Shown here: one piece after another, positions 24,196 to 64,000 of the stretch
Layout: each line of letters starts with the position of its first letter
Numbering within the stretch: the stretch's first letter is position 1
Assembly: GCF_042453785.1 (NCBI RefSeq)
Contig: NC_091668.1
Coordinates: 3,240,501-3,304,500, forward strand
Reading direction: 5' to 3'
Source: Malus domestica
Lineage: Eukaryota > Streptophyta > Magnoliopsida > Rosales > Rosaceae
Length of the DNA: 64,000 nt
The notes under the pieces: generated by a model
Told to the model about the DNA's origin: nothing
Seen by the model: only the letters and a program-made list of their open reading frames with translations
Databases searched by the model: none
Translations under genes and position numbers: made by a program

Positions 24196-24197
24196 AG

Positions 24198-24209
24198 TGG
24201 TATCAGAGC
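24198..24209 (+). other. Primer-binding site of the nested element
   Basis: TGGTATCAGAGC, complementary to the 3' end of initiator tRNA-Met, two bases after the LTR. Typical of Ty1/copia elements. Confidence 0.9.
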
Positions 24210-24696
24210 CTAGGTCTAGTAGTTGGTGAATCCTTTTGGGTTTTGTAGTTCATAAGTTTATGATTTAAAAGTTGTAATTGTTACAAGCTTTATTCTTGCT
24301 TCTTTGAATGTAAATTTTGTTTGAAAATTTGCCATCTCAAATGTTGTAGATGTAGTTCATATGAGCATGAATATTGGAGCTAAAATTTGGTGCCATGATT
24401 TTGGGAATTTTCGGCCAAATCCAAAGGGTGATTTTTTGGGTTCATGTTTGTCTTGTTAAAATGGTTTTAAGGTGACTTTTGGAACCCCTAAGTACCCTAG
24501 GATGTTAGCCTCATTTTGAATGATGAAAATTTGAGTTTTATGGCTTGAAAACATTCATGGAGCTCTTATGGGTTTTCATGGATGTTCTTCATTGTTCTTG
24601 ATGTTCTTGCCAAGAACAAAAAGGTTTTGTGTTTTGATTCAAAGTTTTGAATATTTCATAAAGTTTATGTTATATGTTTTACAAATGATTTATCAT

Positions 24697-24924
24697 GTAT
24701 TTAAAGTGTTAAATATTTGAATAAATGATGATGGAAACATCAATCATCAAAACATATATTAATTTTATGAAAGTATTTAAAGTGTTAAATATTTGAATAA
24801 ATGATGATGGAAACATCAATCATCAAAACATATATTAATTTTATGAAAGTATTTAAAGTGTTAAATATTTGTATAAATGATGATGGAAACATCAATCATC
24901 AAAACATATATTATTTTTATGAAA
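24697..24924 (+). repeat. Three 76-bp tandem repeats in the nested element leader
   Basis: Units start at 24,697, 24,773 and 24,849 with GTATTTAAAGTGTTAAATAT and contain an inverted word pair GATGATGG / CAATCATC. Family member 2 has only two units (59,028-59,179). Confidence 0.92.
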
Positions 24925-27199
24925 GGTGAAAGCACTACTTGATTGTTTTTGACAAAACTAATAAATCAAAACACCCATCACTCATTTTTATCCCTAAAAA
25001 CCGGCCACCCTAATAAAATAGGGTATTTTTGGGGCTTTTATGCAATTACATAAAGTTTTGATACTTTTGTGTATTTGTACTTTGACCCGAAAGTTTACGT
25101 TTTGACGTTAAGGCCTAAAAACGCTAAAGGACAAATTGTTTTGCTCCTTTAATGAAGTTTTTGAATTTATTTAAATTTTGGGTTCTAGTTGTATTTACAT
25201 GAAGTAGTGACTTTTGTGTTTTTACAAAGTGACCCCAAAAGTTTATGTTTTCGCAATATGACCCAAAAAGTTGTGGTTATTGCATGATGGCCCAAATAGG
25301 ATGAGAACAAAATTGTTTTGTCTCTTTAAATGAGAATTGGATTTTCATTTTGTTTAGCTCCACTTAAATCAATTTATGGATACAAAAACCAAATGAAAAT
25401 GTTGCATTCAATTAATTAGTTAAAGCGTTAATTAATTAAAGGATGATTATGAACCTAAGCCTAATATAATTGAGCTATGTGAAAGGCGTTTCAAATTTGT
25501 TTGAACCATGGGAATGTGTAGATTAGATTTTGGTTGTAATTTGATTTGATCAAATGTTGTAAAAGGGCATAAGTCCTTCTTTACTTTAAGGTAATTTGTT
25601 TTATGCAAATGTTGTAATGAGCATAAGCTCATCCTTTACTTTGAAGTATTTCTTTCTTGCTTTATATGATATGCATGAAAATGAAGTAATTGGGTCCAAC
25701 GCCCCTAAGACAACACGCCTTAATGTGATTAAACGCGTAACTAAAATCAATCTCCATCCCTAGACCGAGATTCAACACAAGGCTCGTGTTGAATCTAAAC
25801 AAAGGTTCATAGTCATCCTAAGGCCCTAAGGCAACTATATAGTCCATCAAATGAATGCAAACCTTATGTTAGTAGTAACATATACTCTTGCTTTAAAAAC
25901 CGTTTTAAAAGCATAGCGGGAGTATTATGTACAACTAAAACAATCATATGGACCAATAGTTGTAATAAGACCAAAATTGTTTTAATAGAGATTAAAATGT
26001 ATATTGATATGTGATGAGACCTAAAACCCTCAACCAAACCAATATTAAGTTGAAAGCGTGAGAGTGCTTAGAACATTCTTTCGTGGCCTTCCACCATGGT
26101 AGTTCCAATCGTTTATGACTTGTACACCGGCTTCACCCTATCATGGGGAAGTACAAAGTGCATGCTTATACTCAGGAGGAGTCTATATACATATGATGAG
26201 GTGAGTGTAGGCAACGAGGATAGCTATATATCGTATCATCGTGAGGCTATTCTTGAACCCCTTCACGCACTAAGCATGGTGGGAAGAACTTAACTAAGTG
26301 CAATGGAACCAATATCATATCATTGTGAGGTTACATTCTCTAGAGGCCAAATAAGATGGGTACTTGCATTAGTTGCAAATGAGTAAGCGTACTCTCTCAT
26401 TATTATTGTTGCTAGCCATATATCGTATCATCGTGAGGTGGGCTTGGTAATAGTGAGCCTCCCATAACCTACTAAGAGTTTCATCCAAAACTCTCGAATT
26501 CCAACGAGGGATATGGAATTTGCCAAAAATAGTGGGTGATGCTATTTGAGTTAAAGACCCGAATCAAATGGCTTAAAATCAATCAATTTATATACGTTAT
26601 GTATTTGTTTACCAATATATTTGCAAACGTTATCCAACACTTGACAAATAAAAGCCGAACGTTTAGTTTACGGACTTGGTACTACAAAACCATAGATTGT
26701 CTTTAATGGCTTGTAAATGTACCTAAGTAGTCTCATCCTCACAATCTTCCTATTGATAATGTATCATTAGAAGAATATGTTAGAAAAGGTCTATCATAGA
26801 GAGGACAACACTTTTAATGTCATAATTCTTCAATTACAAATTGTTGTATGAAGAAATAGGAGTTGCTTTGAACAACCCTTAGTCAATGCAAACACTTAGT
26901 GCTTGTTTCTTTGTTAAATGAACAAAGAACTTGAGAAGAAAGCACAAAGGCATGGACACTTAATGTGCCATGATTCTTCACTTGCAAATTGTTGTATGAA
27001 GAAATGAGAGTTGCCTTGTACAACTCTTGAAAGTTTGTAATTATGTTTAGAACATAATGGTTGGTTGACAAAAATAGTCCATTAACATGGACTTATGATG
27101 ATTTTGAATCATTGAGTGTTGAAGTGTTAAACCACTTAACGAGACGGAAACTAGGCAAGGACTTCACCTTTGTTTCCCCTATCCTAATGGTTCACTAAG

Positions 27200-30065
27200 T
27201 TTATGGTAAACTATGTAGTGAACAATAACCACATACTCTCCAAATTGTTTGATGTGTATAACACAATTGAAAAAGGTTTCAAGAGAGATAGTGGGAGTTT
27301 AGGGACCATGACTAATGTAGTCAAAGGTGAAAGTCAAATAAAGAAGATAAATAACTCCAAGGGAACAAACTGTCTTTATGAAAGGATGGACATTGGAAGG
27401 GGTATTTGCAAGAAATGTCTTGCAAGTGTCAAGAACACACCTTTCGAAGGTGTTGTAAATAGTTCTTGAATAGTTCAAAACAGTTGGTTCTTCTACTTGA
27501 ATGTATGATTTCGTATTAGTAACTATGTTTTACAAATCGTTGTAAAAGTGTGACTAATAAGAAGTAGAAGATATATGAGAGAAGAAAAGGTGCTTCACAT
27601 ACGGAACGTGAATAAGATATAGATCTCTGCGAAAGCAGATAGTACTTACTTCCTCATATGAACTACCAAAGAAATTGGATTATAGTAATCTAATTGATTG
27701 TCTCTATAGTAGAGATGATATGGTAGTGTTAACTGTTTAGAATATAATGATGCTTAAAACCCAAAAGGTTGCAAGGTAGTGACTAATCCCAACTAAATTG
27801 TGATACCTCTAAAACATAAGTTACGAGTTGGTGAAACAAGGATGCTTTGGATCGTTAGATCCGGATCCAATACCTTCTTGTTAAAATTGTATAGAGGCGA
27901 AATGTTCGAATCTTTATTCTTTTGGAAAGAAGAAAGAATCACAAAGTTGTTGAGGTTAATTCACTTAGATGTTAGTGGCACTTGTCCACAACATAATACT
28001 ACTCATGTTATATGACATTCACCGAAGATCACTCTCGGTTGGACTATAGTTTATTTTGAATAAACACAAGTCCGAATACTTTGCAAAAGGTTTCAAAGAA
28101 TTCAAGAAATGTAAATAGATGAGTAAGATATCTAAAGTATTTACCTCCTTAGATTTGATCCAAGGAAAGGTAACACTTTAGATGAGTTTCCTTGAAAGAT
28201 ATCAAGGAAATAAGCATCATAAGATAATGTGTTTCTCCATTAGGAGAAGAACGAACTCGAATAAGATTTAGTTCGTTAGATATTATCTATTACCCATATA
28301 TAGGATATATACTTCTAAAACAATATGATTGTCAATGAGAAGATCTTCCAATATTTTCATGACTCCATAAGATGTAGTTGGAAAGAAAGACAAATCTTAA
28401 GCATGTTAAAGATTTGGGGTTGTGTGCTAACAAGCAATATTTGTTTAATAACAATCTTGTGGGATATCCTTAAATTAACTTTTGGATATCGCTTCTATAA
28501 ACCAACTAGCAAATGTTGTTTTGTTGGGTAGTTCATTGTAATTCTACAATGTGATTTGCCTAAAAGCAAATGAACGAGAGATAGAACTCAAAGAATGGGT
28601 TCTTTGAGAGACAAGATAGTAATCAACAAATATAACAACCTAGTTCCTATACCACAAGCTCCAAGGTAGTCGATAAGGATTTATAAACCGTCTCAGTTGA
28701 ATGGTTTTGAACTTTATGACTACAATGAGTGCATATACGATATATACTCAAGAAAATGGTAAAGTACCATTTGACTCGAAATAATGAAACCTTCAAAGCT
28801 AATTGGTAGCTTAAGGTGACTACAATCAAAGAGAATGGTTGACTTTAAAGAAACCATTTTTGACGTAGTCTTAGTTTCAATTAATTCGAAGATTGCTAAG
28901 CTACAACTAAAATGGTGATTCAATGTTTTGACATAATATGGGTTTCCGAAACCATTATTAAGATAGTCTTGATAATATATGTCCAAAACTATAAATCACA
29001 AGACATGTAAGTTGTAGAGATCCATCCATCATGGATCTTAGCAAGTTAGTAGGAGCTATTTGCATTTTATGAGGAAAAAGGATCAAATCGTTTGATTTCT
29101 CATCAAGATGTAAATGAATCTTTTGTTTACGAGTTTTACAAAAGATTAGTGGGAGTTAATCATGTTCCTAAAATGTAAGTATATATGATATATTAATTTT
29201 GGAAATGAAAAGAATACTTCTTCGTTAAAGTTATGACTTTAATACATTATATGAAGATAGAATGTATATGGGAGATATAGTCTATATACATGGGATGGAA
29301 ATATATAATGATATATTTCATGATATAATTGGATTATATCAATCCCTAATAATAGACAATGGATGCTAGGAAGTTTCTCATATGATGATAAACTTCAATA
29401 AGAAGGACGATTCTAGTGAGACTAGCAAATTGCCCTTCTCAAAGGGAACGTACCCTTTGACTCCCATAGAAATAATGCGTAAATTGAATCCTTTATGCAT
29501 AAGCAGAAAGGTGATTTATGTATTTCATATTGTATGAAAAACATTGATATGAGTTGTACCTAGAACGGTACAAGACGATATCAGTGCAAGCCCAGGATCA
29601 GAACCGTGGCAACTGTCAAGTGAGTCCTTAAGTATTTAAGAAATACTTAAGGATAGATTCCTCAAAGAATGAGGAAGAATTAGAGTAACGTAATGGAAGC
29701 GTAAATGTATTAGATTATGAATCTGATCCATCATTGGATGTTTCTTCATTATGAATGAAGAGATAAACAAATATCTCTTTATTATGACTAAAGAGATATT
29801 TGGATGGAAACATTAAAGTAATGACTTTAGTGTGTTCCATTATGAATGCAAGATATATTGCCATATAGAAGTTTACAACAATGTTGTTTGGATGGGAAAG
29901 TTCATTTATGAACTCTCTATTCGATTCCAACCAGAAAGTGTATGACACTAATGGGGCGATAGCTCAAGCCTGGGAATCAAGGTCTCATCAAGATCCGAAC
30001 ACAAATGAGAGACTGAACCACATGATTGAGAATCATGTATAATGGTGACGTCGTTATTCTCAAGG
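27200..30065 (+). pseudogene. Decayed copia gag-pol of the nested element
   Basis: Traces in order across many stops and frameshifts: a gag/zinc-knuckle tail (ICKKCLASVK, about 27,410), a protease-region trace at about 27,550-27,620, integrase (LLRLIHLDVSGTCP at about 27,945, then NKHKSEYF..GFKEFKK at about 28,060-28,110), a later block with FGYRFYKPT (about 28,480), an RT/RNase H connection trace near 29,570-29,640, and RNase H NGAIAQA followed by SRSHQ (about 29,950-29,990). No enzyme could be made from it. The 24,210-27,200 stretch is non-coding leader or gag too decayed to see. Confidence 0.82.
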
Positions 30066-30192
30066 TTGCTTCTGTGGATAACACATATAGATATCCACTG
30101 TCTAGGCCTACTATTCAGCCATTTATGAAATGACTACAGAAGAGGTATCATCAAGATGACCAAGCTGATTGGCTCTAGTGCAAGTGGGAGAT

Positions 30193-32012
30193 TGTTGGAA
30201 ATGTGCCCTAAAGCCAATCATGTGATGATACTTTACGGACATTTCACATGTTAAACTAATCTAGTTTTACATATAAAGGGCATACATTATTGTTTGAGCC
30301 GTCTCATATAAATGTTATATGCTTAAGCGATAAAGTCCAAGGAATATGTGATTGGGAGAATGTAATCTAATGAAGTTAGATTCATGAGACCATTCTTTCG
30401 TAGACACATCCTAAATGTTCCTGATCATAGGATTGCCAATTGGGCGTTGACAGTCCGTTAAGATCAGTACGTACTATGTCTTCTCTCAGGGAGAGTGATT
30501 AGTCTCGAGTCATTGGTGTGTGTGACATCAAGACAAGTACGTAGGTGCTCAATAGAGAATGAGTTCACTGAACGTGATCAACGAAGAGTTCTTATATTCC
30601 ATGTCACATGAGAACTCATGGTTGGGATAATGCAAAGTAGTCCTTTGACCTGAGGCATCACAGTTGTCTTGTGGTTAAATCCTTGATCTTTGATTATGTC
30701 AAAGTCACCCCCTCGGGGTGTCCACGGCATCGTTGGGGTTAAGCCACTTAGCTATGGAGACAAGTGAATGCGCAACAAGGGATCTCTAACCTTCAAACAG
30801 TTGAGGGAGAATACTCTATGATATGATTTGGAATCTCTGGCCAGAGTATGAATGAGATTGTGGAATGCGTTCCAAATCACATTCAAGGAAATCATATAAG
30901 CAAACGATTCACATTGGATAGTAGACATGAGTAAATAAACTATCATACCAAACAATGTGGTCAAGAGTATTAAATTAGAGAAGGACCGTATTGCATTTGT
31001 AATCCTGAACTGAATAGGTTCTCTATCCTCTTCTGATTAGCTTGGGTAACCATGATATGCTGCTAGGTGTCACTCATGGTTTGTGGAAGCCCTAAATGTG
31101 TGTAATCACTAAAGGGGGAATTGAAAAATAGTTTCAATTCATAATCGATGTAAAATGGTTTTAATCGCTCACTGCCTCGCTAAAAGGAACCTAATGGATC
31201 GCACACCATAAAAGGTGGAGATTGAAGATTAAACGGAAATGAGTAAGAATGATTAAATGGTTTAATCATTTATTTATGGCATGGATTAATTAATATGTTA
31301 ATTAATCAAACGAATAAGTTCGTTAAAGACCTCGGGATAATTTTGGACCTTAAGGCCCAATGGGCTTCGAATGTCAAGCCCATTGACTTAAGTTGTATGA
31401 CAACTTAATGAATAAAGATTCACAAAGGCCCAAAAGCCCAAAAATCCTAAGGTAGGCTTGCCATGTAGATGAATTAGGGTTTTTGTTCTTTAGGTCACTT
31501 ATTTGAAGGGACTATATAAAGGACTTTATAGCCAAATATTCATTAAGGTGATTAAGGGTTTATTTTGGGTGAAAATGGGTGAGAATTGTCTCTCCATTTT
31601 CTCTCTAAAGAAGCTAACACCTTGGAGGGTACATCTAGCAATACTACTACTCCAAGGTCACTCATTTCTTCTACAATCAAACCTTGGTGAAGAGACTTAG
31701 AGGTTCCCTATTTTGGGAACTTGGAGAAACCTATTCTTCCATCCAAATCCATGGATCTAAGAAGCAAGGAATGAAGGCCCCTATCTCTTTGGGTGATTAG
31801 CCTTTGCTTATGCAAAGAGGAATCTACAAAGGTATTAATTTCAACTCACTTTGTTTTGAGTTGATTATTGGTTCACCAATCTACTAGGCTTTGAATTTCA
31901 TGGGTAATGTTTTGTTTTTGAATGCATACAAGCATGATTCCGCCTTTAATTTGTTAATTGCATGCCATATGATGTTATTCAAATGAACATGTTTTTCAAA
32001 ATAATTCCTTCA
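30193..32012 (+). repeat. Nested element 3' LTR
   Basis: 1,820 bp. Differs from the 5' LTR at three positions that I can see (about 30,912, 31,567 and 31,766). Confidence 0.95.
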
Positions 32013-32017
32013 ACATA

Positions 32018-34360
32018 TGCCACACAACCAAAGATACGTGGGGACAAATGAAGAGAAAATGGTAATGTCACATGGTCAGCAAGAACTTCCATAGGAGTGC
32101 GAAAATTAAGCACTCGGGATGGCATGCGGTTCATTAGATAAACGGAGTATCTGACGGCATCTGCCCAATAAGAGTGAGGGGCGTGAGCACCAATGAGGAG
32201 TGCTCGAGTGGTTTCCAAAATATGTCTATTTTTGCGCTCGGCTACACCATTTTGTTGTGGAGTGTGTGGGCAAGTAGTCTCATGAAGAATGCCATGCTCC
32301 TAAAAAAATTGAGAAAGTTCGGTATTGATATATTCCCCACCATTATCTGACCTAAGAACCTTAAGGGGTAGAGAGAATTGATTTTTAACCATGCAGTAGA
32401 ACTGGTTAAAAATCTGTCCAACATCACTTTTATGCTTCATAGTATAAAGCCATGTCATTCGGGTGCAGTCATCCACAAAGATAACAAACCAACGAACCCC
32501 ATGATTAGTGGCTACTGGAGAAGGCCCCCACACATCAGAATGAACTAACTCAAAAGGAATTGTTCTTTTATTGAAACTCGAATGATAAGAAGTACGATGA
32601 CTTTTTGCAAGAATGCAATCATTACACTGAAAATTAGAGTCTGGAATGCCATGAAATAAAGACGGTAGCAATTTTTTCAAATAACCAAAAGATGCATGCC
32701 CTAATCGACGATGCCATAACCAAATTGTCTTATTCTTGTTCAGATGACCACTGCACACTTGATTTACGTGACTTGCCGATACATCATCCACATAATACAA
32801 CCCTCTCCTCTTAGTATCACGCCCAATTATCGCCCGAGTCTGGATATCCTGAAGTAGGCAAAATGTAGGAAACATTAACACAACACAATCTAATTGCTCA
32901 GTAACTTGACCAACAGAAAGTAGATGATTAGATAATGTTGGAACAAGTAGTGTATTGTGAATAGACAAAGATGGAGTAAGGGAAATAGAACCCGCTCCCG
33001 TTATAGGAGCAACATCACCGTTGGCTGTAATGACATCTTCTTTAGATGGTGAAGTCATGTGATAAAATAATGATGCATCGTAAGTCATATGGTCTGTAGC
33101 TCCAGAGTCAATTATCCAACCAGTATCTCTTTTGGTGGATGTTATTAAAACAGTACCGATTTTACCTGAATCTTCTGAGTTGTCACCCATTGAAATTTGA
33201 TTGATTAAGGATAGAAGTGGGCCCGTTTCTGTCTCCTTGGAAGCTGCCTCTGAAATTGGCACCGCAAACTGGGCTGCCGCTATTGGACTTAACGGGCTGG
33301 GCCTTAGTTGACTCGGTGCAACAGCAGCTATCCCCCTGCTCGCATCAGATTTCTCTTGTTGGGCTTTGGACCCAGCTTGGCTCCCTGCTGCATTAGATGC
33401 GACTCCTGATCCAGTGGCTGCCATACGGGCCTGTCCAGCCCGTTTGTTCCCCCGTGCCTTTAGCTCATTCTTCCTTTCCCAGTACCATTCTGGGTACCCA
33501 TGAATTTCAAAACAGGTCTCTTCAGTGTGTCTTGTTCCATTACAATGATTGCAATGGAGTTTGTCTTTATCAATATCCTCATGGGTTCGGAATGACCGAG
33601 AACTTCCATTAGATGGTGGACGCGACCCAGGTGCCTTAGTTGCCATAGCCATAGGAGGTGCTGTCATTGTAGTCTTTGTTCCCATCATAGTGACCTGCCT
33701 TTGGGATTCACATCGTACCAAATTGAAGCATTCTTCGATTTCGGGGATAGGTTTTATCCTTAGAATCTCACTCCGAACTTGGTCAAACACACTATCTAAT
33801 CCCACAAGAAAATCATACACCCTATCTTTTGCGAGTTCTTCTTTACGAGTTTTCAAATCTACTCCACACACCATACGGAGAGGACGTCGTTTGTCAAGGT
33901 CCTGCCACACACTCTTTAATTCAGTGAAGTACAAATTAATTGGACGACCATCCTGTCTTGTCCTTGTAGCTTTGCACCGGAGTTCATAGTATTGGGACTC
34001 ATCAGAACCATCATAAAACATCTGGGTGACACTCTCCCAGATATCTTTAGCCGTGGGCAAGTCTATAAAAAGGCCAAGCAGGTGGGGTTCCATGGTTTTG
34101 AGCAACCACCCACGCACAATAGCATCTTCCGTTGACCACTTCACATATCCTGGATCATCTTCATCTACTGCCGGGATTTTTCCCGTTAGATACCCTTGCT
34201 TACCAAGACTTGAAGCATGAACCTCCATCATCTTCGACCAAACCTTGAAGTTCGAGTCGCTCAATCGATACCCAAACGGAATGGAGTTGACGTTGGATGA
34301 CTCACCTTGGACCGATATGGTTTGCATGGGAATTATATCTCCAGTTTTGATGTCTGCCAT
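32018..34360 (-). pseudogene. Outer copia gag-protease-integrase, one nonsense codon
   Basis: An open frame from 34,360 runs 686 codons to a TAG at 32,302-32,300 and stays in the same frame past it up to the nested insertion. It shows a copia-type gag N-terminus, a CCHC knuckle (CNHCNGTRHTEETC), protease DSGATDHM, a GAG-pre-integrase block with LWHRRLGHAS and CNDCILAKSH, and integrase acidic sites in HSDVWGP and LRSDNGGEY. The third integrase acid, in NGVAERKN, lies past the stop. The single nonsense codon and the insertion at 32,012 are the breaks seen. Without suppression this copy cannot make a complete polyprotein. Confidence 0.93.
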
Positions 34361-34530
34361 TGCACGGACAGATGTGCAGGTTATGTATATTTGTTTTTTT
34401 TTTCTGTAGCTTTGTTGATTCCAAAGGCTACGGTGCTTTGGTTTCTGGGTTCAAAATTTGATGAACATCAGAGTTTTGGCGGCTAGGGTTTTTTCCGAGA
34501 CGAGACAGGTCGAAACCTGCTCTGGTACCA

Positions 34531-34720
34531 AGTTAAATTCTAGGTTTTAGATGAATATTTTTCTCACTTTTTTTCTTCTCACATAGAGGAATATATAAAC
34601 TTATACAATCTCCTACAAACTAGGAAACAAGTATCCCAAATCCACAAGGATACCAATTACATAATTTTATACCCAAAATATCTCCTCATTCCTTATTTCC
34701 TAAGATTTCCTCACGCAACA
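34531..34720 (-). repeat. Outer copia 5' LTR
   Basis: 190 bp, same ends as the 3' LTR. It is followed on the minus strand by the tRNA-Met primer-binding site at 34,530-34,519. Confidence 0.95.
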
Positions 34721-34725
34721 GGAGT

Positions 34726-41562: not shown

Positions 41563-41567
41563 TGGAG

Positions 41568-42209: not shown

Positions 42210-42214
42210 TGGAG

Positions 42215-49464: not shown

Positions 49465-52150
49465 ATGTTTAAGAGACCACAATCTCTTCTCTTACTCTCC
49501 TCTGCCCTCTCTCACTCTGCCCGCATATCCCCATCTTCTTCTTCCTCCTCCTCTCAATGGTTCTCCATCCTCCGCGCCGCCGTCGCCGCCGCAGACTTGC
49601 AGCTCGGAAAGCGTGTGCACGCGCTGATCGTAACCTCCGGCGATGGCCCGGATCAGTTTTTGACCAACAACCTCATCGCCATGTATTCCAAATGCGGATC
49701 GCTTTTATCCGCACGCCGCCTGTTTGATAAAATGCCCGGCCGAGACCTTGTCACATGGAACTCCATTCTAGCGGCCTATGCGCATGCTGCGGGCTCTGAT
49801 GTTGAGAATGTTCAAGAGGGTCTTAGCCTTTTCCGGCGTCTTCGTGAGTCGGTTGTTTTTACCAGTCGGCTCACTTTGGCGCCGGTTTTGAAAATGTGTT
49901 TGATATCAGGGCACCTATGGGTTTCCGAGGCGGTTCATGGGTATGCTGTTAAGATTGGATTGGAGTGGAATGAGCTTGTTTCTGGTGCTCTTGTGAATAT
50001 ATATTCTAAATTCGGACGAATTAAGGCCGCTCGTGTGTTGTTTGATGGGATGATGGAAAGGGATGTTGTGTTGTGGAATACAATGCTCAAGGCATATGTG
50101 GAAACGGGTCTTGAGGAAGAAGGACTTTCTTTCTTCTCAGCGTTTCATCGGAGTGGATTGCATCCCGATGATGTAAGTGTGCGTTCTGTTCTCAATTGGA
50201 TTGACAAAGTTGATTCTTATGAATGCAAGAGGCACATGGAGCAGGTTCAAGCATACGCGACAAAATTGTTTTTGTATGATACAAAGTCAGAGTGTTCGGA
50301 TATATATTCTTGGAACAAGACGTTGTCCGAGTATGTTAAAGCTGGTGAAAATTGGGCTGCTATAGACTGCTTTAGAAACATGGTACGATCAAAAGTAGAG
50401 ATTGACACGGTGACATTAGTTGTTATTCTGTCTACGGTTGCCGGTGTAAATGATTTGGAGTTGGGGAAACAGATTCATGGTCTTGCTTTGAAATCACGTT
50501 TTGATTCTGTTGTTTCTGTTGCAAATAGCCTCATCAACATGTATTCACGGGCTCGTTCTGCTTATTCTTCAAGAAAAGTGTTCAATCGCATGAAAGAAGT
50601 GGACTTAATTTCGTTGAACTCAATGATATCATGTTGTGCGCAAAGTGGTTTAGGAGAGGAAGCCGTAAACTTATTCATAGGCTTATTACATGATGGTTTG
50701 AGACCGGATCAATTTACTATCGCAAGTATTCTAAGGGCTTGCTCCTCCCTTGAAGAAGGGTTGTCAGCCAGCAAACAGATACATGTTCATGCTATAAAAT
50801 CTGGTATTGTTGCTGACAGTTTTGTTTCGACAGCTCTTATTGATGTTTATTCTAGAAGTGGAAACATGGAGGACGCGGAGGTCGTTCTTGGAAATGAACT
50901 TGAATTCAATCTGGCATCTTGGAATGCAATGATGTTCGGATACATAATGTGTAATGACAGTCACAAGGCATTGGAACTTATGAGGATAATGCACGAAGGT
51001 GGACACAGCACAGATGCGATATCTTTAACAACTGCGGCTAAGGCTGCTAGTAGCCTGGTAGCTTTGGGACCAGGACCAGGAAAGCAAATTCATGCTCATG
51101 CCATAAAAACAGGTTTTGTTTCGGATTTATGTGTTAACAGTGGAATTCTGGAGATGTATATCAAATGTGGTGACATGGGAAGTGCACACACAGTGTTCAA
51201 CGACATCCCTGCACCCGATGGTGTTGCATGGACAACTATGATCTCAGGATGTGTAGAAAATGGAGATGAAGGGCGCTCTCTTTCTATATACCATCGGATG
51301 AGGCAGTCAGGAGTCTCCCGATGAATATACCTTAGCCACCCTTGTCAAAGCCAGCTCTTGTCTGACAGCATTAGCACCAGGGAAACAGATACACGCTGAT
51401 GTGATAAAGTTGGATTTTTCCTCAGACCCTTTTGTCGCGACATCACTTGTTGACATGTATGCCAAGTGCGGCAACATAGAAGATGCTTATCATTTATTCA
51501 GGAAAATGGATGTTAGGAATGTCGCCCTGTGGAATGCCATGTTGGTCGGTTTAGCTCAGCACGGAAATGCTAAAGAAGCACTAAGCCTTTTCAGAGTCAT
51601 GAAAACGAAGAACATCGAGCCTGATAGAGTTACTTTCATTGGAGTCCTTTCCGCTTGCAGCCATTCTGGTTTAGTATCCGAAGCATTTGAGTATTTTTCT
51701 AAAATGCAGAAAGATTACGGCGTCGAACCTGAGATGGAGCACTACTTTTGCCTAGTTGATGCCCTTGGCCGCGCAGGTCTATTCCAAGAGGCAGAAAAAC
51801 TGATAGCATCAATGCCCTTTGAAGCTTCTGCTTCAATGTATAGAGCCCTTCTATGTGCTTGTAGAGTAATGCTCGTAGAGTCAAAGGGGAAACCGAAACT
51901 GGAAAACGGGTAGCAGTACAGCTCCTGGCTGTGGAGCCATCTAACTCGTCTGCTTACGTGCCTTTATCCAGCATCTATGCAGCTGCAGCGTTCTCTGTAC
52001 TACCAGAGTCAGAAGCTAGCAATAGCTTATGGACTCATAAGCACTCCTCCATCCGCTGCCATTTGGGTGATAAAAAAACCTGAGAGTTTGTGAAGATTGC
52101 CAGAATGCAGTCAAATACATATCTAAGGTTTCTCAGAGAGAGATCGTTTC
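49465..52150 (+). pseudogene. PPR-DYW (PLS class) protein, pseudogene with two frame breaks
   Basis: The first frame (49,465-51,324, 619 codons) starts MFKRPQSLLLLSSALSHSAR, an organelle-targeting-like N-terminus, then PLS repeats (LGKRVHALIVTSG, NNLIAMYSKCGSLLSARRLF, ERDVVLWNTMLKAYVE). At about 51,316 the frame shifts, and repeats continue in 51,327-51,866 (PDEYTLATLVKASS, MYAKCGNIEDA, PDRVTFIGVLSACSHSG). A second shift at about 51,865 follows a near-duplicated GTAGAGT. Then come E-motif traces (about 51,870-51,980) joined abruptly to a DYW remnant (KLAIAYGLISTPPSA and, after another shift, DCQNAVKYISKVSQREI, ending about 52,140). The front of DYW is deleted. It resembles At4g33170-type proteins, which edit organellar RNA. 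Unlikely to be functional, though the first frame could make a truncated repeat protein. Confidence 0.88.
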
Positions 52151-52299
52151 ATGGGGGTTCTTTCAGTGCAGCTGCCTGCTATCCGACCCATATTTTTTGA
52201 ACAGATGGATTTCGTGGCGAATCACTTTTGGGTAACCCCATCTTCTACCTTCAGTTTTTGCTTATGGTACTTCATTGGCAACATTGCTAGATTTAGGGA

Positions 52300-53000
52300 T
52301 TCTACTGACCGATTTGGAATGAGCTTGTTTCTGGTGCTCTTGTGAATATATTCCAAATTCGGATGAATTAAGGCCGCTCTTATGTTGTTGATGGGATGAT
52401 GGAAAGGGATGTTGTGTTATGGAATACAATGCTCAAGGCATATGTGGAAACAGGTCTTGAGGAAGGACTTTATTTCTTCTCTGCATTTCATTGGAGTGGA
52501 TTGCGTCTTGATGATGTTAGTGTGCGCTCTGTTCTCCGTGGGATTGACAAAGTTGATTCTTATAGATGCAAGAGGCATACGGAGCAGGTTCAAGCATACG
52601 CGAAGAAATTGTTTCTGTATGATACAAAGTAGGAGTGTTTGGACATATATTCTTGGAACAAGACATTGTCCGAGTATGTTAAAGCTGGTGAAAATTGGGC
52701 TGCTGACTGCTGTACTGTATTCGAACGCTTGTTCTGCTTATTCATTGAGAAAAGTGTTCAATCACGTGAAAGAAGTGGACTTAATTTCGGTGAACTCAAT
52801 GATATCATGATGTGCGCAAAGTGGTTTAGGAAGGAAGCGGTAAACTTATTTACAGGTTATTATTACATGATGGGCTGTCAGCCAGCAAACAATTCATGTT
52901 CATGATATAAAATCCGATATTGTTGCTGACAGAATAAACTCAAGTTCAATCTGGCATCTTGGAATGCAATGATGTTCGGATACGTAATGTGGGATGACGG
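52300..53000 (+). pseudogene. Second, shorter PPR fragment (partial duplicate)
   Basis: Closely matches 49,955-50,960 of the neighbour: TGGAATGAGCTTGTTTCTGG, ATGGAAAGGGATGTTGTGTT, CAAGACATTGTCCGAGTATG, TGGCATCTTGGAATGCAATG. It has a stop from TAG after TACAAAG (52,630) and internal deletions at about 52,709 and 52,895-52,935. It lies directly after the first pseudogene in the same orientation, so it looks like a partial tandem duplicate. Confidence 0.88.
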
Positions 53001-53434
53001 TCAGATGGCAAAGTTCAAGATTTTTAGAGGGTTTGAGGGAAATCCCCATATCTGCACTTAATAGGCAAGGCAAGCATTTGAGTCTGGCATCTCGTTCATC
53101 AACTCAGGGAACATTTTGATGTCTGGAAGGCTCATCCCCTTTTAACTTCAATGACTGATGGAAAAAGGGAAGAGGTGAGAGTTATATACTTCATTGTTTT
53201 TACTTAATTTGTTTTAACAAAAAAAAATAGCGTGTTGAAATCATTGTCAAGAGTGTTTAGTCAAAGAATTCATAGCGCACACAGAATTTTGAGAAAAAAA
53301 AATGTTAAAAGACTTTACCCATATAGTATTTTTATTTTTTATTTATTTTTGCTCTAAGAAACGAAAAAGCACTAGATAGTGATACCATGATCACAACCAG
53401 TTCCAATACAATTAAGAACAATGATGATTCTCTT

Positions 53435-55640: not shown

Positions 55641-56698
55641 TGTTGATGCACAAAACCGGAGGGATCTTGGAACAACGTAAATCCGACGTGAATTTGCAAG
55701 AAAGTAAAGAACACAAGATGTATCGTGGTTCATCCCAATGTTTGGGCTACGTCCACACTGATGTTGATTGTATTTCTCTTCTCTGTACGAATGTATGGAT
55801 TACAAGTGTGAGGGAGTCCCCCAGAGAAAGAGAGAGTTTGAGAGAGCCTCTGTTTAGGGTGAGGATGAGAGCTTCGAATATGAGAGTGAAGCCTTGGGGA
55901 TCTCAGGCCTCTCCCATTGTGAGAGTGAGGAGTCACTTTTGTAGAATAAGGGCTCATCACTTATTACATAATTACATTTGAGTCCCCCGAGTATTTATAC
56001 GAGGTCTAAATACGGAGGCCTTAAGTATGGTACAAATAGTAGTCCCCCAAGTCTTCAGTCAAGAAAGTCTTTTGGTTAGAGACTTGAAATTCAGTCCATC
56101 TGTGGGTCGAAGTAACTAGATGTCGTCTAGAATTGAATATTCGATATGAGGCGGTGCTCAATGTGAAATGATGCTCAACTAGATGTAGCACATGTTGCGA
56201 GGCTGCTCGGCTTGTGGCTTATGTTGCCTTGGTTGGCTCGGCTTGTGGCGTTGAAGGTGAGGGAGTCCCTTTTATAGAATAAGGACTCGCTCCTCAATAC
56301 ATAAATGATGGGCTAGAGTTGATGCTCGCGGTGAGGCGGTTGCTCAGCAGGCGGCGATGCTCTCTAATGATGGTGAAGGAGTCCATTTTATAGAATAAGG
56401 GCTCATTCTTCAATACATAAGTGATGGGCTAGAGTTGATGCTCGTGGCGAGGCGGTTGCTCAGCAGGCGGCGATGCTCTCTAATGATGGTGACGGAGTCC
56501 CTTTTATAGAATAAAGGCTTGCTCTTCAATACATAAGTGATGGGTGCTCTCTAATGAAAGTGAGGGAGTCCCTTTTATATAATAAGGGCTCGTTCCTCAA
56601 TACATGAATGATGAGTTAAGTCCCTCAAGTCTTTTTCATGAGGCCTAGTTGTGGAAGCCCAATATATTGGTACATATTGCAATCCCCAAAGTCTTCAG
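55641..56698 (+). mobile_element. LTR-like repeat with 116-bp tandem units, cut by the next element
   Basis: Starts TGTTGATGCACAAAACCGGA, then has phrases typical of plant LTR leaders (GTGGTTCATCCCAATGTTTG, GGGCTACGTCCACACTGATG). Later it has tandem 116-bp units at 56,301-56,416 and 56,417-56,532 plus a truncated unit from 56,533. Each carries GGAGTCCCTTTTATAGAATA or a variant. The element is interrupted at 56,698 by the next retrotransposon, and the other end is outside the window. Its family is unknown. Confidence 0.6.
56301..56606 (+). repeat. 116-bp tandem repeat array
   Basis: Units start at 56,301, 56,417 and 56,533 with ATAAATGATGGG / ATAAGTGATGGG. The third lacks about 40 bases after GATGGG. 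A further partial unit precedes them at about 56,250-56,300. Confidence 0.9.
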
Positions 56699-58516
56699 TG
56701 TTGGAAATGTGCCCTAAAGCCAATCATATGATGATACTTTACGGACATTTCACATGTTAAACTAATCTAGTTTTACATATAAAGGGCATACATTATTGTT
56801 TGAGCCGTCTCATATAAATGTTATATGCTTAAACGATAAAGTCCAAGGAATATGTGATTGGGAGAATGTAATCTAATGAAGTTAGATTCATGAGACAATT
56901 CTTTCGTAGACACATCCTAAACGTTCCTGATCATATGATTGTCAATTGGGCGTTGACAGTTCGTTAAGATCAGTACGTACTATGTCTTCTCTCAGGGAGA
57001 GTGATTAGTCTCGAGTCATTGGTGTGTGTGACATCAAGACAAGTACGTAGGTGCTCAATAGAGAATGAGTTCACTGAACGTGATCAACGAAGAGTTCTTA
57101 TATTCCATGTCACATGAGAACTCATGGTTGGGATAATGCAAAGTAGTCATTTGACCTGAGGCATCACAGTTGTCTTGTGGTTAAGTCCTTGATCTTTGAT
57201 TATGTCAAAGTCACCCCCTCGGGGTGTCCACGGCATTGTTGGGGTTAAGCCACTTAGCTATGGAGACAAGTGAATGCGCAACAAGGGATCTCTAACCTTC
57301 AAACAGTTGAGGGAGAATACTTTATGATATGATTTGGAATCTCTGGCCAGAGTATGAATGAGATTAGGGAATGCGTTCCAAATCACATTCAAGGAAATCA
57401 TATAAGCACACGAATCACATTGGATAGTAGACATGAATAAATAAACTATCATACCAAACAATGTGGTCAAGAGTATTAGATTAGAGAATGACCGTATTGC
57501 ATTTGTAATCCCAAACTGAATAGGTTCTCTATCCTCTTCTGATTAGCTTGGGTAACCATGATATGCTGCTAGGTGTCACTCATGGTTTGTGGAAGCCCTA
57601 AACGTGTGTAATCACTAAAGGGAGAATTGAAAATAGTTTCAATTCACAATCGATGTAAAATGGTTTTAATCGCCCACTACCTCGCTAAAAGGAACCTAAT
57701 GGATCGCACACCATAAAAGGTGGAGATTGAAGATTAAACGGAAATGAGTAAGAATGATTAAATGGTTTAATCATTTATTTATGGCAAGGATTAATTAATA
57801 TGTTAATTAATCAAACGAATAAGTTCGTTAAAGACCTCGAGATAGTTTTGGACCTTAAGGCCCAATGGGCTTCGAACGTCAAGCCCATTAACTTAAGTTG
57901 TATGACAATTTAATGAATAAAGATTCATTAAAGCCCAAAAGCCCAAAATTCCTTAGGTGGCCGGCCATATGGTGATGAATTAGGGTTTTGGTTGTTTAGG
58001 TCACTTAAAGAAGTGACTATATAAAGGACTTTATAGCCAAATATTCATTAAGATTATTAAGGGTTTATTTTGGGGGAAAATTGGTGAGAATTGTCTCTCC
58101 ATTTTCTCTCTAAAGAAGCTAACACCTTGGAGGGTACATCTAGCAATCCTACTACTCCAAGGTCACTCATTTCTTCTACAATCAAACCTTGGTGAAGAGA
58201 CTTAGAGGTTCCCTATTTTGGGAACTTGGAGAAACCTATTCTTCCATCCAAATCCATGGATCTAAGAAGCAAGGAATGAAGGCCCCTATCTCTTTGGGTG
58301 ATTAGCCTTTGCTTATGCAAAGAGGAATCTACAAAGGTATTAATTTCAACTCACTTTGTTTTGAGTTGATTATTGGTTCACCAATCTACTAGGCTTTGAA
58401 TTTCATGGGTAATGTTTTGTTTTTGAATGCATACAAGCATGATTCCGCCTTTAATTTGTTAATTGCATGCTATAGATGTTATTCAAATGAACATGTTTTT
58501 CAAAATAATTCCTTCA
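56699..58516 (+). repeat. 5' LTR of family member 2
   Basis: 1,818 bp. Aligns over its whole length with the LTRs at 22,376 and 30,193, with scattered substitutions and small indels. TATA box at 58,018-58,027. Confidence 0.93.
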
Positions 58517-58518
58517 AG

Positions 58519-58530
58519 TGGTATCAGAGC
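58519..58530 (+). other. Primer-binding site of family member 2
   Basis: TGGTATCAGAGC, two bases after the LTR, as in member 1. Confidence 0.9.
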
Positions 58531-59027
58531 CTAGGTCTAGTAGTTGGTGAATCCTTTTGGGTTTTGTAGTTCATAAGTTTGTGATTTAAAAGTTGTAATT
58601 GTTACAAGCTTTATTCTTGCTTCTTTGAAAGTAAATTTTGTTGGAAAATTTGCTATCTCAAATGTTGTAGATGTTGTTCATATGAGCATGAATATTGGAG
58701 CTAAAATTTGGTGCCATGCTTTTGGGAAAATTCGGCCAAATCCAAAGGGTGGAATTTTGGGTTCTTGTTTGACTTGTTAAAAGTGTTTTAATGTGTTCTT
58801 TGGAATCCCTAAGTACCCTAGTTTGGTTAGATGTTATTTCCCTTAAGTAAGAATGGTTTTGGAATGTTTTTGGGTGAAAAAAGTTCATGGAAAAATTTGG
58901 GTTTTTCATGGATGTTCTTCATTGTTCTTGATGTTCTTGCCAAGAACAAAAAGGTTTGGTGTTTTGATTCAAAGTTTTGATTTATTTCATAAAGTTTATG
59001 ATATATGTTTTTCAAATGATTTATCAT

Positions 59028-59179
59028 GTATTTAAAGTGTTAAATATTTGTATAAATGATGATGGAAACATCAATCATCAAAACATATATTATTTTTATG
59101 AAAGTATTTAAAGTGTTAAATATTTGTATAAATGATGAAAGAAATATCAATCATCAAAACATATATTATTTTTATGAAA
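59028..59179 (+). repeat. Two 76-bp tandem repeats in the leader of member 2
   Basis: Units start at 59,028 and 59,104. Same unit as the three copies at 24,697-24,924. Confidence 0.9.
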
Positions 59180-61455
59180 GGTGAAAGCACTACTTGATTG
59201 TTTTTGACAAAACTAATAAATCAAAACATCCACCACTCCTTTTTATCCCTAAAAACCGGCCACCCTAATAAAATAGGGTATTTTTGGGGCTTTTATGCAA
59301 TTACATAAAGTTTTGATACTTTTGTGTATTTGTACTTTGACCCGAAAGTTTACGTTTTGACGTTAAGGCCTAAAAACGCTAAAGGACAAATTGTTTTGCT
59401 CCTTTAATGAAGTTTTGAATTTATTTAAATTTTGGGTTCTAGTTGTATTTACATGAAGTAGTGACTTTTGTGTTTTTACAAAGTGACCCCAAAGTTTATG
59501 TTTTCGCAATATGGCCCAAAAAGTTGTGGTTATTGCATGATGACCCAAATAGGATGAGAACAAAATTGTTTTGTCTCTTTAAATGAGAATTGGATTTTCA
59601 TTTTGTTTAGCTCCACTTAAATCAATTTTATGGATACAAAAACCAAATGAAAATGTTGCATTCAATTAATTAGTTAAAGCGTTAATTAATTAAAGGATGA
59701 TTATGAACCTAAGCCTAATATAATTGAGCTATGTGAAAGGCGTTTCAAATTTGTTTGAACCATGGGAATGTGTAGATTAGATTTTGGTTGTAATTTGATT
59801 TGATCAAATGTTGTAAAAGGGCATAAGTCCTTCTTTACTTTAAGGTAATTTGTTTTATGCAAATGTTGTAATGAGCATAAGCTCATCCTTTACTTTGAAG
59901 TATTTCTTTCTTGCTTTATATGATATGCATGAAAATGAAGTAATTGGGTCCAACGCCCCTAAGACAACACGTCTTAATGTGATTAAACGCGTAACTAAAA
60001 TCAATCTCCATCCCTAGACCGAGATTCAACACAAGGCTCGTGTTGAATCTAAACAAAGGTTCATAGTCATCCTAAGGCCCTAAGGCAACTATATAGTCCA
60101 TCAAATGAATGCAAACCTTATGTTAGTAGTAACATATACTCTTGCTTTAAAAACCGTTTTAAAAGCATAGTGGGAGTATTATGTACAACTAAAACAATCA
60201 TATGGACCAATAGTTGTAAGAGGACCAAAATTGTTTTAATAGAGATTAAAATGTATGTTTATATGTGATGAGACCAAAAACCCTCAACCAAACCAATATT
60301 AAGTTGATAAGCGGAGAGTGCTTAGAACACTCTTTCGTGGCCTTCCACCGTGGTGGGATCCAATCGTTTATGACTTGTACACCGGCTTCACCCTATCATG
60401 GGGGAGTACAAAGTGCATGCTTATACTCAGGAGGAATCCATACACATATGATGAGGTGAGTGTAGGCAACGAGGATGGCCAATATCATATCATTGTGAGG
60501 CTATTCTTGAACCCCTTCATGAACTAAGCATGGTGGGAAGAACTTAACTAAGTGCAATGGAACCAATATCATATCATTGTGAGGTTACATTCTCTAGAGG
60601 CCAAATAAGATGGGTACTTGCATGAGTTGCAAAAGAGTAAGCGTACTCTCTCATTATTATTGTTGCTAGCCATATATCGTATCATCGTGAGGTGGGCTTG
60701 GTAATAGTGAGCCTCCCATAACCTACTAGGAGTTTCATCCAAAACTCTCGAATTCCTATGAGGGATATGGAATTTGCCAAAAATAGTGGGTGGTGCTATT
60801 TGATTTAAAGACCCAAATCAAATGGCTTAAAATCAATCAATTTATATTCGTTATGTATTTGATTACCAATATATTTGCAAACGCTATCCAACACTTGACA
60901 AATAAAAGCCGAACGTTTAGTTTACGGACTTGGTACTACAAAACCATAGATTGTCTTTAATGGCTTGTAAAAGTACCAAAGTAGTCTCATCCTCACAATC
61001 TTCCTATTGATAATGTATCATTAGAAGAATATGTTAGAAAAGGTCTATCATAAAGAGGACAACACTTTTAATGTCATAATTCTTCAATTACAAATTGTTG
61101 TATGAAGAAATAAGAGTTGCTTTGAACAACCCTTAGTCAATACAAACACTTAGTGCTTATTTCTTTGTTAATTGAACAAAGAACTTGAGAAGTAAGCACA
61201 AGGGCATGGACACTTTATGTGCCATGATTCTTCACTTACAAATTGTTGTATGAAGAAATGAGAGTTGCCTTGTACAACTCTTGAAAGTTTGTAATTATGT
61301 TTAGAACATAATGGTTGGTTGACAAAAATAGTCCATTAACATGGACTTATGATGATTTTGAATCATTGAGGGTTGAAGTGTTAAACCACTTAACGAGACG
61401 GAAACTAGGCAAGGACTTCACCTTTGTTTCCCTATCCTAATGGTTCACTAAGTTT

Positions 61456-64000
61456 ATGGTAAACTATGTAGTGAACAATAACCACATACTCTCCAAATTG
61501 TTTGATATGTATAACACAATTGAAAAAGGTTTCAAGAGAGATAGTGGGAGTTTAGGGACCATGACTAATGTAGTCAAAGGTGAAAGTCAAATAAAGAAGA
61601 TAAATAACTCCAAGGGAACAAACTTTCTTTATGAAAGGATGGACATTGGAAGGGGTATTTGCAAGAAATGTCTTGCAAGTGTCAAGAACACACCTTTCGA
61701 AGGTGTTGTAAATTGTTCTTGAATAGTTCAAAACAGTTGGTTCTTCTACTTGAATGTATGATTCCGTATTAGTAACTATGTTTTACAAATCGTTGTAAAA
61801 ATGTGACTAATAAGAAGTAGAAGATATATGAGAGAAGAAAAGGTGCTTCACATACGGAACGTGAATAAGATATAGATCTCTGCGAAAGCAGATAGTACTT
61901 ACTTCCTCATATGAACTACCAAAGAAATTGGATTATAGTAATCTAATTGATTGTCTCTATAGTAGAGATGATATGGTAGTGTTAACTGTTTAGAATATAA
62001 TGATGCTTAAAACCCAAAAGGTTGCAAGGTAGTGACTAATCCCAACTAAATTGTGATACCTCTAAAAACATAAGTTACGAGTTGGTGAAACAAGGATGCT
62101 TTGGATCGTTAGATCCGGATCCAATACCTTCTTGTTAAAATTGTATAGAGGCGAAATGTTCGAATCTTTATTCTTTTGGAAAGAAGAAAGAATCACAAAG
62201 TTGTTGAGGTTAATTCACTTAGATGTTAATGGCACTTGTCCACAACATAATACTACTCATGTTATATGACATTCACCGAAGATCACTCTCGGTTGGACTA
62301 TAGTTTATTTTGAATAAACACAAGTCCGAATACTTTGCAAAAGGTTTCAAAGAATTCAAGAAATGTAAATAGATGAGTAAGATATCTAAAGTATTTACCT
62401 CCTTAGATTTGATCCAAGGAAAGGTAACACTTTAGATGAGTTTCCTTGAAAGATATCAAGGAAAATAGCATCATAAGATAATGTATTTCTCCATTAGGAG
62501 AAGAACGAACTCAAATAAGATTTAGTTCGTTAGATGTTATCTATTACCCATATATAGGATATATACTTCTAAAACAATATGATTGTCAATTAGAAGATCT
62601 TCCAAAATTTTCATAACTCCATAAGATGTAGTTGGAAAAGAAAGACAAATCTTAAGCATGTTAAAGATTTGGGGTTGTGTGCTAACTAGCAATATTTGTT
62701 TGATAACAATCTTGTAGGATATCCTTAAAATAACTTTTGGATATCGCTTCTATAAACCAACTAACAAATGTTGTTTTGTTGGGTAGTTCATTGTAATTAT
62801 ACAATGTGATTTGCCTAAAAGCAAATGAACGAGAGATAGAACTCGAAGAATGAGTTCTTTGAGAGACAAGAAAGTAATCAACAAATATAACAACCTAGTT
62901 CCTATACCTCAAGCTCCAAGGTAGTCGATAAGGATTTATAAACCGTCTCAGTTGAATGGTTTTGAACTTTATGATTATGTCATAGAGTTGCACCTCTTAA
63001 TTCGAAAGAAATAAGAATAAAAAAAAAATATCCTTATGACTACATTAAGTGCATATACGATATATACTCAAGGAAATGGTAAAGTACCATTTGACTCGAA
63101 ATAATGAAACCTTCATAGCTAATTGGTAGCTTAAGGTGACTACAATCAAAGAGAATGGTTGACTTTGAAGAAACCATCTTTGAGATAGTCTTGGTTTCAA
63201 TTAATTCGAAGATTGCTAGCTACAACTAAATGGTGATTCAATGTTTTGACATAATATGGGTTTCCGAAACCATTATTAAGATAGTCTTGATAATATATGT
63301 CTAAAACTATAAATCACAAGACATGTAAGTTGTAGAGATCCATCCATCATGGATCTTAGCAAGTTAGTGGGAGCTATTTGCATTTTATGAGAAAATGATC
63401 AAATCGTTTGATTTCTCATAAAGATGTAAATGAATCTTTTGTTTACTAGTTTTACAAAAGATTAGTGGGAGTTAATCATGTTCCTAAAATTTAAGTATAT
63501 ATGATATATTAATTTTGGAAATGAAAAGAAAGCTTATTCGTTAAAGTTATGACTTTAAGCATTCTATAAACGATAGAATGTATATGGGAGATATAGTCTA
63601 TATACATGGGATGAAAATCTATAATGATATATTTCATGATATAATTGGATTATATCAATCCCTAATAATAGACAATGGATGCTAGGAAGTTTCTCATATG
63701 ATGATAAACTTCAATAAGAAGGACGATTCTAGTGAGACTAGCAAGTTGCCCTTCTCAAAGGGAACGTGCCCCTTTGACTCCCAAAGAAATAATGCGTAAA
63801 TAGAATCCTTTATGCGTAAGCAGAAAGGTGATTTATGTATTTCATATTGTATGAAAAACATTGATATGAGTTGTACCTAGAACGGTACAAGACGATATCA
63901 ATGCAAGCCCAGGATCAGAACCATGACAACTGTCAAGTGAGTCCTTAAGTATTTAAGAAATACTAAAGGATAAATTCCTCAAAGATCGAGGAAGAATCAA
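61456..64000 (+). pseudogene. Decayed copia gag-pol of family member 2
   Basis: Carries the same ordered traces as member 1 (ICKKCLASVK at about 61,665; the integrase region at about 62,200-62,370), with the same breaks plus further indels such as an extra block with an A-tract near 62,975-63,035. The window ends before the RNase H traces. Confidence 0.8.

What the first reader, a model, noticed from the sequence alone, without database searches (positions are those of the whole stretch)
24196..64000. An LTR family that moved after its coding region had died
Seen: members at 22,376-32,012 and 56,699-64,000 share the same disrupted coding traces, including the same stop in the integrase region (28,063 and about 62,310) and the same frame changes. 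Member 1 has LTRs with about three differences in 1,820 bp and a perfect ACATA target duplication. Inference: the shared lesions predate both insertions, so the family amplified without its own enzymes, using proteins from another copia element. It keeps full LTRs, primer-binding site and purine tract, about 6 kb of interior and a long leader.
Basis: partly seen in the sequence, partly recalled or inferred. Interest (0 to 1): 0.7.

Follow-up and report, generated by a model that had tools for sequence, protein, structure and literature searches.

The report
Protein-less retrotransposon sharing helper's RNA domain
This is a very young, many-copy plant jumping element that can no longer make its own proteins; it probably copies itself with the proteins of a coding sister family, with which it shares an unusual folded RNA region, and its dead genes seem to have turned into folded RNA.

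Summary
Confirmed and extended. M1 (22376-32012) and M2 (56699 to about 66327, past the window) are separate insertions with different perfect 5-bp target duplications and unrelated flanks. In the 14 full copies examined, from 11 contigs, LTR pairs differ at 0-12 sites in about 1815, and no interior holds a stop-to-stop frame over 108 aa. The lesions are largely shared. Against a coding sister element in the same genome the interior still shows colinear remnants of gag, integrase, RT and RNase H. So the family multiplied after its genes died. The sister has the same primer site, purine tract and a similar leader; 22 of 97 scored gag hits lie in open frames of at least 1300 aa, so a helper is plausible.

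Beyond the finding: (1) Copies are mosaics; blocks, including the U3 promoter core, assort without significant association, as template switching between co-packaged RNAs would give. (2) Leader 26010-26466 is a folded RNA domain with strong covariation, conserved in the coding sister. Its three hairpins have loops that change in concert; loop types I and II occur in both families. (3) The dead gag-pol region is hairpin-rich, and paired sites vary less than unpaired ones. Packaging or dimerisation is the likeliest role of the domain, not shown.

The parts
22376..32012 (+). M1, complete non-coding LTR element (9637 bp), nested in an antisense copia element
22371..22375 (+). left target-site duplication ACATA of M1
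32013..32017 (+). right target-site duplication ACATA of M1
22376..24195 (+). M1 5' LTR (1820 bp)
   Evidence: 1817/1820 identical to the 3' LTR
23576..23775 (+). hypervariable U3 core with TATA-like ACTATATAAAGG; up to 18.6% different between copies, 0-1 differences between the two LTRs of one copy (14 copies)
24196..24210 (+). primer-binding site AGTGGTATCAGAGCC, same in the coding sister
   Evidence: match to initiator tRNA is recalled knowledge
24697..24925 (+). 76-bp tandem repeat of the leader (3 copies in M1, 2 in M2)
26010..26466 (+). folded RNA domain of the leader, covariation-supported in 14 copies and in the coding sister L033
26215..26255 (+). hairpin 1 of 3, loop TATCAT (type I)
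26302..26337 (+). hairpin 2 of 3, loop TATCAT (type I)
26396..26457 (+). hairpin 3 of 3, loop TATCAT (type I)
26700..30192 (+). dead gag-pol region (left border set by me): remnants of gag (trace ends about 27298), integrase (about 28221), RT second half (about 29348), RNase H (about 30118); rich in hairpins
28057..28063 (+). shared break of the integrase trace
30182..30192 (+). purine tract AAGTGGGAGAT next to the 3' LTR, same in the coding sister
30193..32012 (+). M1 3' LTR
56699..64000 (+). M2, second copy (continues to about 66327 in window numbering, locus L011)

Best explanation
M1 and M2 belong to a large non-autonomous copia LTR-retrotransposon family whose gag-pol died in a common ancestor and which has kept multiplying by cis-acting parts alone (LTR promoter and ends, primer site, purine tract, leader RNA domain). 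Its RNA is most likely packaged and reverse-transcribed by proteins of a coding sister family of the same genome. The folded leader domain with three like-looped hairpins, shared by both families, is the best candidate for what lets the RNA be recognised or dimerised. Template switching between co-packaged RNAs explains the mosaic copies. Shown: young insertions of ORF-less copies, shared lesions, colinear gag-pol remnants, coding sister, mosaicism, conserved RNA fold. Inferred: trans-mobilisation, packaging or dimerisation role, template switching as the mechanism.
For: 14 of 14 copies have perfect 5-bp TSDs and near-identical LTR pairs; no stop-to-stop frame over 108 aa in 14 of 14 interiors, M2's read in two pieces. 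Lesions are shared. Remnants of 4 of 6 gag-pol pieces are colinear with L033 (L033 domains by Pfam). The sister has the same PBS and purine tract, the same LTR start, and a leader 88% identical at its start and 78% further on. Gag of the sister: 6999 first-look candidates, 97 scored, 22 in frames of at least 1300 aa (134). Recombination: PHI 0 of 1000 permutations as low; four-gamete incompatibility rises from 0.09 under 50 bp to 0.65 beyond 3.2 kb (44); block clusters show no significant association (15 block pairs, lowest p 0.065) while both LTRs of a copy carry the same U3 core. Domain: 138 pairs, 99.5% of cells paired against 38-46% slid, 19 pairs with two-sided change, covariation 0 of 500 shuffles as high. 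The fold derived without L033 holds at 122 of 137 pairs in L033, 10 of them changed on both sides, against 36-46% and 1-4 when slid.
Against: No experiment; no transcript or particle data. The 12 extra copies were chosen as paired LTRs among the 40 best matches to M1's LTR, so young and similar ones are over-represented. Mosaics could also come from recombination or conversion between genomic copies before transcription. Loop type is not matched by a different Gag: a 181-aa gag piece of 8 type I and 2 type II coding copies has one fixed difference, and between-type identity (93.9-96.7%) lies inside the within-type-I range (92.8-98.9%). The zinc knuckle in the coding copies looks degenerate, so their Gag may not be functional.
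Confidence: 0.82

Rival explanations
1. The family has its own undetected intact master copies; the copies seen are their defective offspring, so no trans-mobilisation is needed.
For: Only 14 full copies were read, while the LTR search had 3344 first-look candidates.
Against: The coding frames are not lightly damaged but decayed beyond Pfam recognition in the 7 pieces tried, and 220 of 275 stop triplets are common to all 14 copies; a recent intact master should leave copies with long frames. The coding element found differs by about 25% in the alignable LTR.
Confidence: 0.07
2. The folded leader domain serves another step (translation control of the helper, nuclear export, silencing escape, or RNA-RNA contact between the loops), not packaging; concerted loops come from copy-choice jumps between the repeats.
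For: Loop type is not tied to a different Gag piece; three near-identical repeats invite jumps; in type I copies stems differ between repeats while loops agree.
Against: The domain is kept in elements that encode nothing, so a role in translation is unlikely for them; two-sided changes in stems speak for maintained pairing.
Confidence: 0.35
3. Hairpin richness of the dead gag-pol is a by-product of reverse transcription (self-templated switching makes palindromes), not of selection for folded RNA.
For: Folding is equally strong on the other strand (mean z -3.2); the LTR is also rich in stems; two non-coding control stretches reach 2-3 times their shuffles; few two-sided changes in this part (4 against 1.2 expected).
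Against: Paired sites are less variable than unpaired sites among the other 13 copies for 6 of 6 reference folds (5 with 0-4 of 2000 shifts as low, one with 73).
Confidence: 0.4
4. M1 and M2 are a segmental duplication.
For: Both lie within 35 kb.
Against: Different TSDs (ACATA, TTCAG), unrelated flanks, different LTR-pair divergence, mosaic differences.
Confidence: 0.01

Closest known systems
BARE-2 of barley (PMC3735527, passages read)
   Same: Copia element that cannot make Gag, with conserved dimerisation and packaging signals, packaged into particles, and predominant over the coding BARE-1 in barley
   Different: BARE-2 lacks Gag and the rest of its frame may be translated; here all genes are dead. 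No three-hairpin domain is mentioned in the passages I saw.
Large retrotransposon derivatives, LARD (definition in passages of PMC4668562)
   Same: LTRs and a long conserved non-coding interior
   Different: Here the interior still shows colinear gag-pol remnants, and LTRs are 1.8 kb. In pear that paper lists 3 LARD families, 78 elements, none with identical LTRs; here 3 of 14 selected copies have identical LTRs.
HODOR, high-copy apple repeat, 9716 bp, KX869746 (passages of PMC6901071, PMC13334179, PMC8558331, PMC6445120)
   Same: Similar length and high copy number; the genome here has the size and contig layout of apple (inference)
   Different: Sequence not available to me, so identity untested; the coding sister element (about 9.8 kb, estimated from coordinates) would fit the length as well
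Athila pol-less families of Arabidopsis (PMC2410132, abstract and Discussion read)
   Same: Families without pol that propagated for about two million years, probably in trans, and recombine with coding families
   Different: Athila is not a copia element (recalled) and many copies keep gag or env frames under selection
Ty1 kissing-loop dimerisation domain (PMC5454406, search listing with start of abstract only)
   Same: Structured 5' RNA of a copia-type element with a part in dimerisation and packaging
   Different: Yeast; no homology tested

Membership tests
Copia superfamily | integrase before reverse transcriptase in pol | tested here: met
   order gag, IN, RT, RNase-H piece in L033 (Pfam names the first three; the RNase-H piece gave no Pfam hit and is named by position and look) and the same order in the M1 remnants
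LTR retrotransposon | LTRs TG...CA, TSD, PBS, purine tract | tested here: met
   LTR ends, TSD and PBS in 14 of 14 copies; purine tract unchanged in 12 of 14, one base changed in L012 and in M2
Non-autonomous, trans-mobilised element | no own coding capacity yet recent insertion | tested here: met
   longest stop-to-stop frame 108 aa in 14 of 14 interiors; LTR pairs 0-0.7% different
Non-autonomous, trans-mobilised element | helper proteins act on it | not testable with these tools
   needs particle or transposition data
LARD | coding region replaced by long conserved non-coding DNA | tested here: inconclusive
   conserved and non-coding, but with decayed gag-pol remnants rather than a replacement
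HODOR | sequence match to KX869746 | not testable with these tools
   sequence not held
Angela/Tork lineage | place in an RT tree | not tested
   lineage name is recalled from the look of the LTR ends only

The most novel reading that the evidence does not exclude
The three-hairpin leader domain is a recognition code shared by a coding retrotransposon family and its protein-less parasite: its loops exist as interchangeable alleles (TATCAT, TATAAT, AGTTCT, and TATTCT in an old copy), the same in all three hairpins of every young element examined, and two alleles are found in both families. After the genes died, the gag-pol stretch was turned into selected RNA structure, so the element now lives as a folded RNA.
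Probability: 0.35. Interest if true: 0.82.

Novelty: new variant of a known kind. Interest (0 to 1): 0.64.

Why it matters
How a retrotransposon RNA without proteins is chosen by another element's particles is little known in plants (my recall). Here parasite and coding relative share a compact RNA domain with strong covariation and natural loop variants, which makes the question testable. The dead gag-pol region offers a natural experiment on what selection keeps in a retrotransposon RNA once coding is gone.

Tried and rejected
Rejected: segmental duplication (different TSDs and flanks); autonomous master within the family (no long frame in the 14 interiors scanned, 3344 first-look candidates not scanned). 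Led nowhere: LTR-start pattern in viral contigs and genome contigs (0 matches); related loci in viral contigs for the RT of the copia element that M1 sits in (3 stretches matched a pattern, none encoded a relative); the same RT in the own genome (12226 first-look candidates, 150 scored: finds that element's own lineage, no help for M1); Rfam (0 at gathering threshold; one sub-threshold CRISPR-repeat match with E 0.046, taken as chance); ARAGORN (0). A pattern for another interior next to the same LTR start gave one place, L035, which reads as an LTR-LTR rearrangement and has no frame of 80 aa or more. Idea that loop type follows Gag type: not supported. Idea that coding traces do not exist at all: held, dropped.

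Limits: the 14 copies are M1, M2 and 12 LTR pairs among the 40 best scored LTR matches to M1; single LTRs of that list were mostly not followed. A solo LTR (L024), an old copy split by L017's element (L025, L026, edge of L017) and two further copies in L029 and L032 were used only where stated. Folding z-scores used 20-30 shuffles per window; one of the 48 control windows has z -10.2. One search used a loose column shuffle (29 covarying pairs against 8 expected over the element).
Full report
WHAT IS THERE. The window lies in a 651-Mb, 19-contig plant genome; size and layout suggest apple (inference). M1, 22376-32012, has 1820-bp LTRs with 3 mismatches, TSD ACATA, a primer site and a purine tract. 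It sits in the pol region of an antisense copia element: open frames 34360-32303 and 22372-19991 on the minus strand carry gag-pre-integrase, rve, SH3 and RVT_2 by Pfam. M2 starts at 56699 and ends past the window; its LTR pair differs at 12 of 1818 sites and its TSD is TTCAG. Twelve further full copies, the paired LTRs among the 40 best scored matches to the first 1001 bases of the LTR, were fetched. All 14 have perfect 5-bp TSDs and different insertion sites on 11 contigs. LTR-pair mismatches for M1, L012 to L023 and M2 are 3, 2, 1, 4, 0, 0, 3, 3, 10, 3, 0, 1, 5 and 12; three pairs also have indels (1, 3 and 1 in L013, L019 and L023). With a recalled rate of 0.7 to 1.3 x 10^-8 per site and year, M1 is of the order of 60,000-120,000 years old, and three copies are too young to date.

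DEAD BEFORE IT MOVED. In 14 of 14 interiors the longest stop-to-stop frame is 108 aa (13; M2 in two pieces, 93 and 82 aa). Of 275 stop triplets in M1 26700-30192, 220 are stops in all 14 copies; the TAA at 28061 is there in 14 of 14. Variable interior sites show no three-base rhythm to the eye (173, 192 and 197 by phase). The coding origin could not be shown with Pfam on seven pieces (13) or with the copia element that M1 sits in (15, 55). It became clear when a coding sister was found next to a family LTR on contig 4 (L033, L036). Its frames carry copia gag, Pol_BBD, rve, SH3 and RVT_2; the last piece, RNase H by position, gave no Pfam hit. This copy has stops between the pieces. Scored piece by piece against 30 random sequences each, M1 shows gag (z 24), integrase (z 19), RT second half (z 11) and RNase H (z 21) in order; protease and RT first half are at null level. 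The sister shares the primer site and purine tract, 88% of the first 471 leader bases and 78% further on, but only about 75% of the LTR that could be aligned. Its gag has 6999 first-look candidates; of 97 scored, 22 lie in open frames of at least 1300 aa. So open coding relatives exist; which, if any, is active was not asked.

MOSAIC COPIES. M1 and M2 differ by 0-0.5% in some 200-bp stretches and by 12-22% in others. Over 14 copies 315 informative sites give a PHI test with 0 of 1000 permutations as low; site incompatibility rises from 0.09 within 50 bp to 0.65 beyond 3.2 kb. Six variable blocks cluster the copies differently: in 15 pairwise comparisons the lowest permutation p is 0.065; with 14 copies such a test is weak. 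The U3 core 23576-23775 differs by up to 18.6% between copies, yet the two LTRs of any one copy differ there by 0-1 base, so the exchange happened before or during the cycle that made the insertion. An old copy, 86-92% identical in its aligned parts, differs by 32-47% from the young copies in the two 100-bp windows of this core. Template switching between co-packaged RNAs explains this best; recombination between genomic copies before transcription is not excluded.

A FOLDED LEADER DOMAIN. Region 26000-26480 of 14 copies gives a consensus fold of 138 pairs, 19 with changes on both sides. Counted on alignment A2, 99.5% of cells pair, against 38-46% when partners are slid, and covariation is above 500 of 500 shuffles; the number of further pair types is not (468 of 500 shuffles as high). 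The structure was derived from these same sequences, which favours it over the slid versions. The independent test is the sister: the fold, derived without it, holds at 122 of 137 pairs in L033, 10 with both sides changed (slid: 36-46%, 1-4 changed); of 41 pairs that differ from M1, 26 still pair and 15 do not. Inside lie three hairpins, in M1 each followed by TGAGG. Loops agree within each of the 14 copies: TATCAT in 7, TATAAT in 5, AGTTCT in 2; TATCAT also in L029 and L032. An old copy has TATTCT in two hairpins, one of them split right after it by an insertion, and TATTTT in the third. Of ten coding copies examined, eight have TATCAT three times (L037, which is L033, then L038-L043 and L046) and two have TATAAT three times (L044, L045), some with changes beside the loop. 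So two alleles are common to both families. A 181-aa gag piece does not separate the types (one fixed difference), which speaks against loop-to-Gag matching in that piece.

THE DEAD GENES ARE STRUCTURED RNA. In 250-nt windows folding z averages -3.6 in the dead gag-pol of M1 (17 windows) and -3.7 in M2 (14), -2.6 and -2.3 in the leaders of M1 (12) and L033 (7), -2.5 in the sister's coding region (19), -0.8 and -0.2 in the two coding stretches of the copia element that M1 sits in (10 and 11), and -0.7 (s.d. 2.0) in 48 other windows of this stretch. Perfect stems of 8 bp or more: 23 in M1's dead region against 4-5 in shuffles, 12 against 1.9 in the LTR, 5 against about 4 in the leader, 8 against 2.7 in the sister's coding region; of five control stretches outside named genes two reach 2.1 and 3.0 times their shuffles, three 0.7-1.3 times. 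In the dead region paired sites vary less than unpaired ones (161 of 2260 against 131 of 1233; 2 of 2000 circular shifts as low); counted among the other 13 copies this holds for six of six reference folds, five with 0-4 and one with 73 of 2000 shifts as low. In the LTR and leader the same test shows nothing (485 and 445 of 2000). Two-sided changes in the dead region are few (4 against 1.2 expected). Selection on RNA structure is likely; a palindrome-making habit of reverse transcription remains open.

COMPARISON. A defective copia RNA with conserved packaging and dimerisation signals, packaged beside a coding relative, is known from BARE-2 (PMC3735527, passages). Long-lived pol-less families that recombine with coding ones are known from Athila (PMC2410132, abstract and Discussion). 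Movement of non-autonomous LTR elements has been caught in Arabidopsis (PMC8704663, abstract and outline). The family may be HODOR or its relative (length 9716 bp; passages of PMC6901071, PMC13334179, PMC8558331, PMC6445120), not testable here. My paper searches listed nothing that I recognised as concerted loop types shared by a coding family and its parasite, or as a structured dead gag-pol; the library lacks most subscription journals, and I saw listings, passages, two outlines with abstracts and one Discussion only.

Noticed in passing
L033, L038-L040, L042, L047-L050: The zinc knuckle of Gag in the coding sister family looks degenerate: no CCHC match in 10 of 10 pieces; 9 show a CF.C remnant with later ligands changed, the tenth piece (L041) ends before it.
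   Followed up: no
19791-19980 and 34531-34720: LTR-like repeats (189 of 190 identical) of the antisense copia element into whose pol M1 inserted; the sequence on either side of that element resembles 10831-11396 (89% and 82%).
   Followed up: partly
12611-15445 (-): Long open frame for an NB-ARC LRR resistance-type protein.
   Followed up: no
25076-25975: Stretch of the leader with very low diversity among 14 copies (0.1-0.9% per 100 bp), with hypervariable stretches further out; 500 nt of it fold with z -6.75. Constraint or a recent sweep by recombination.
   Followed up: partly
56252-56613: 116-bp tandem repeat just left of M2.
   Followed up: no
L024 (contig 7): Single LTR of the family, 1834 bp, with no interior beside it in the fetched stretch; best scored LTR match to M1 apart from its own pair.
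   Followed up: no
49966-53010: About 90% duplication at and beside PPR-type frames.
   Followed up: no
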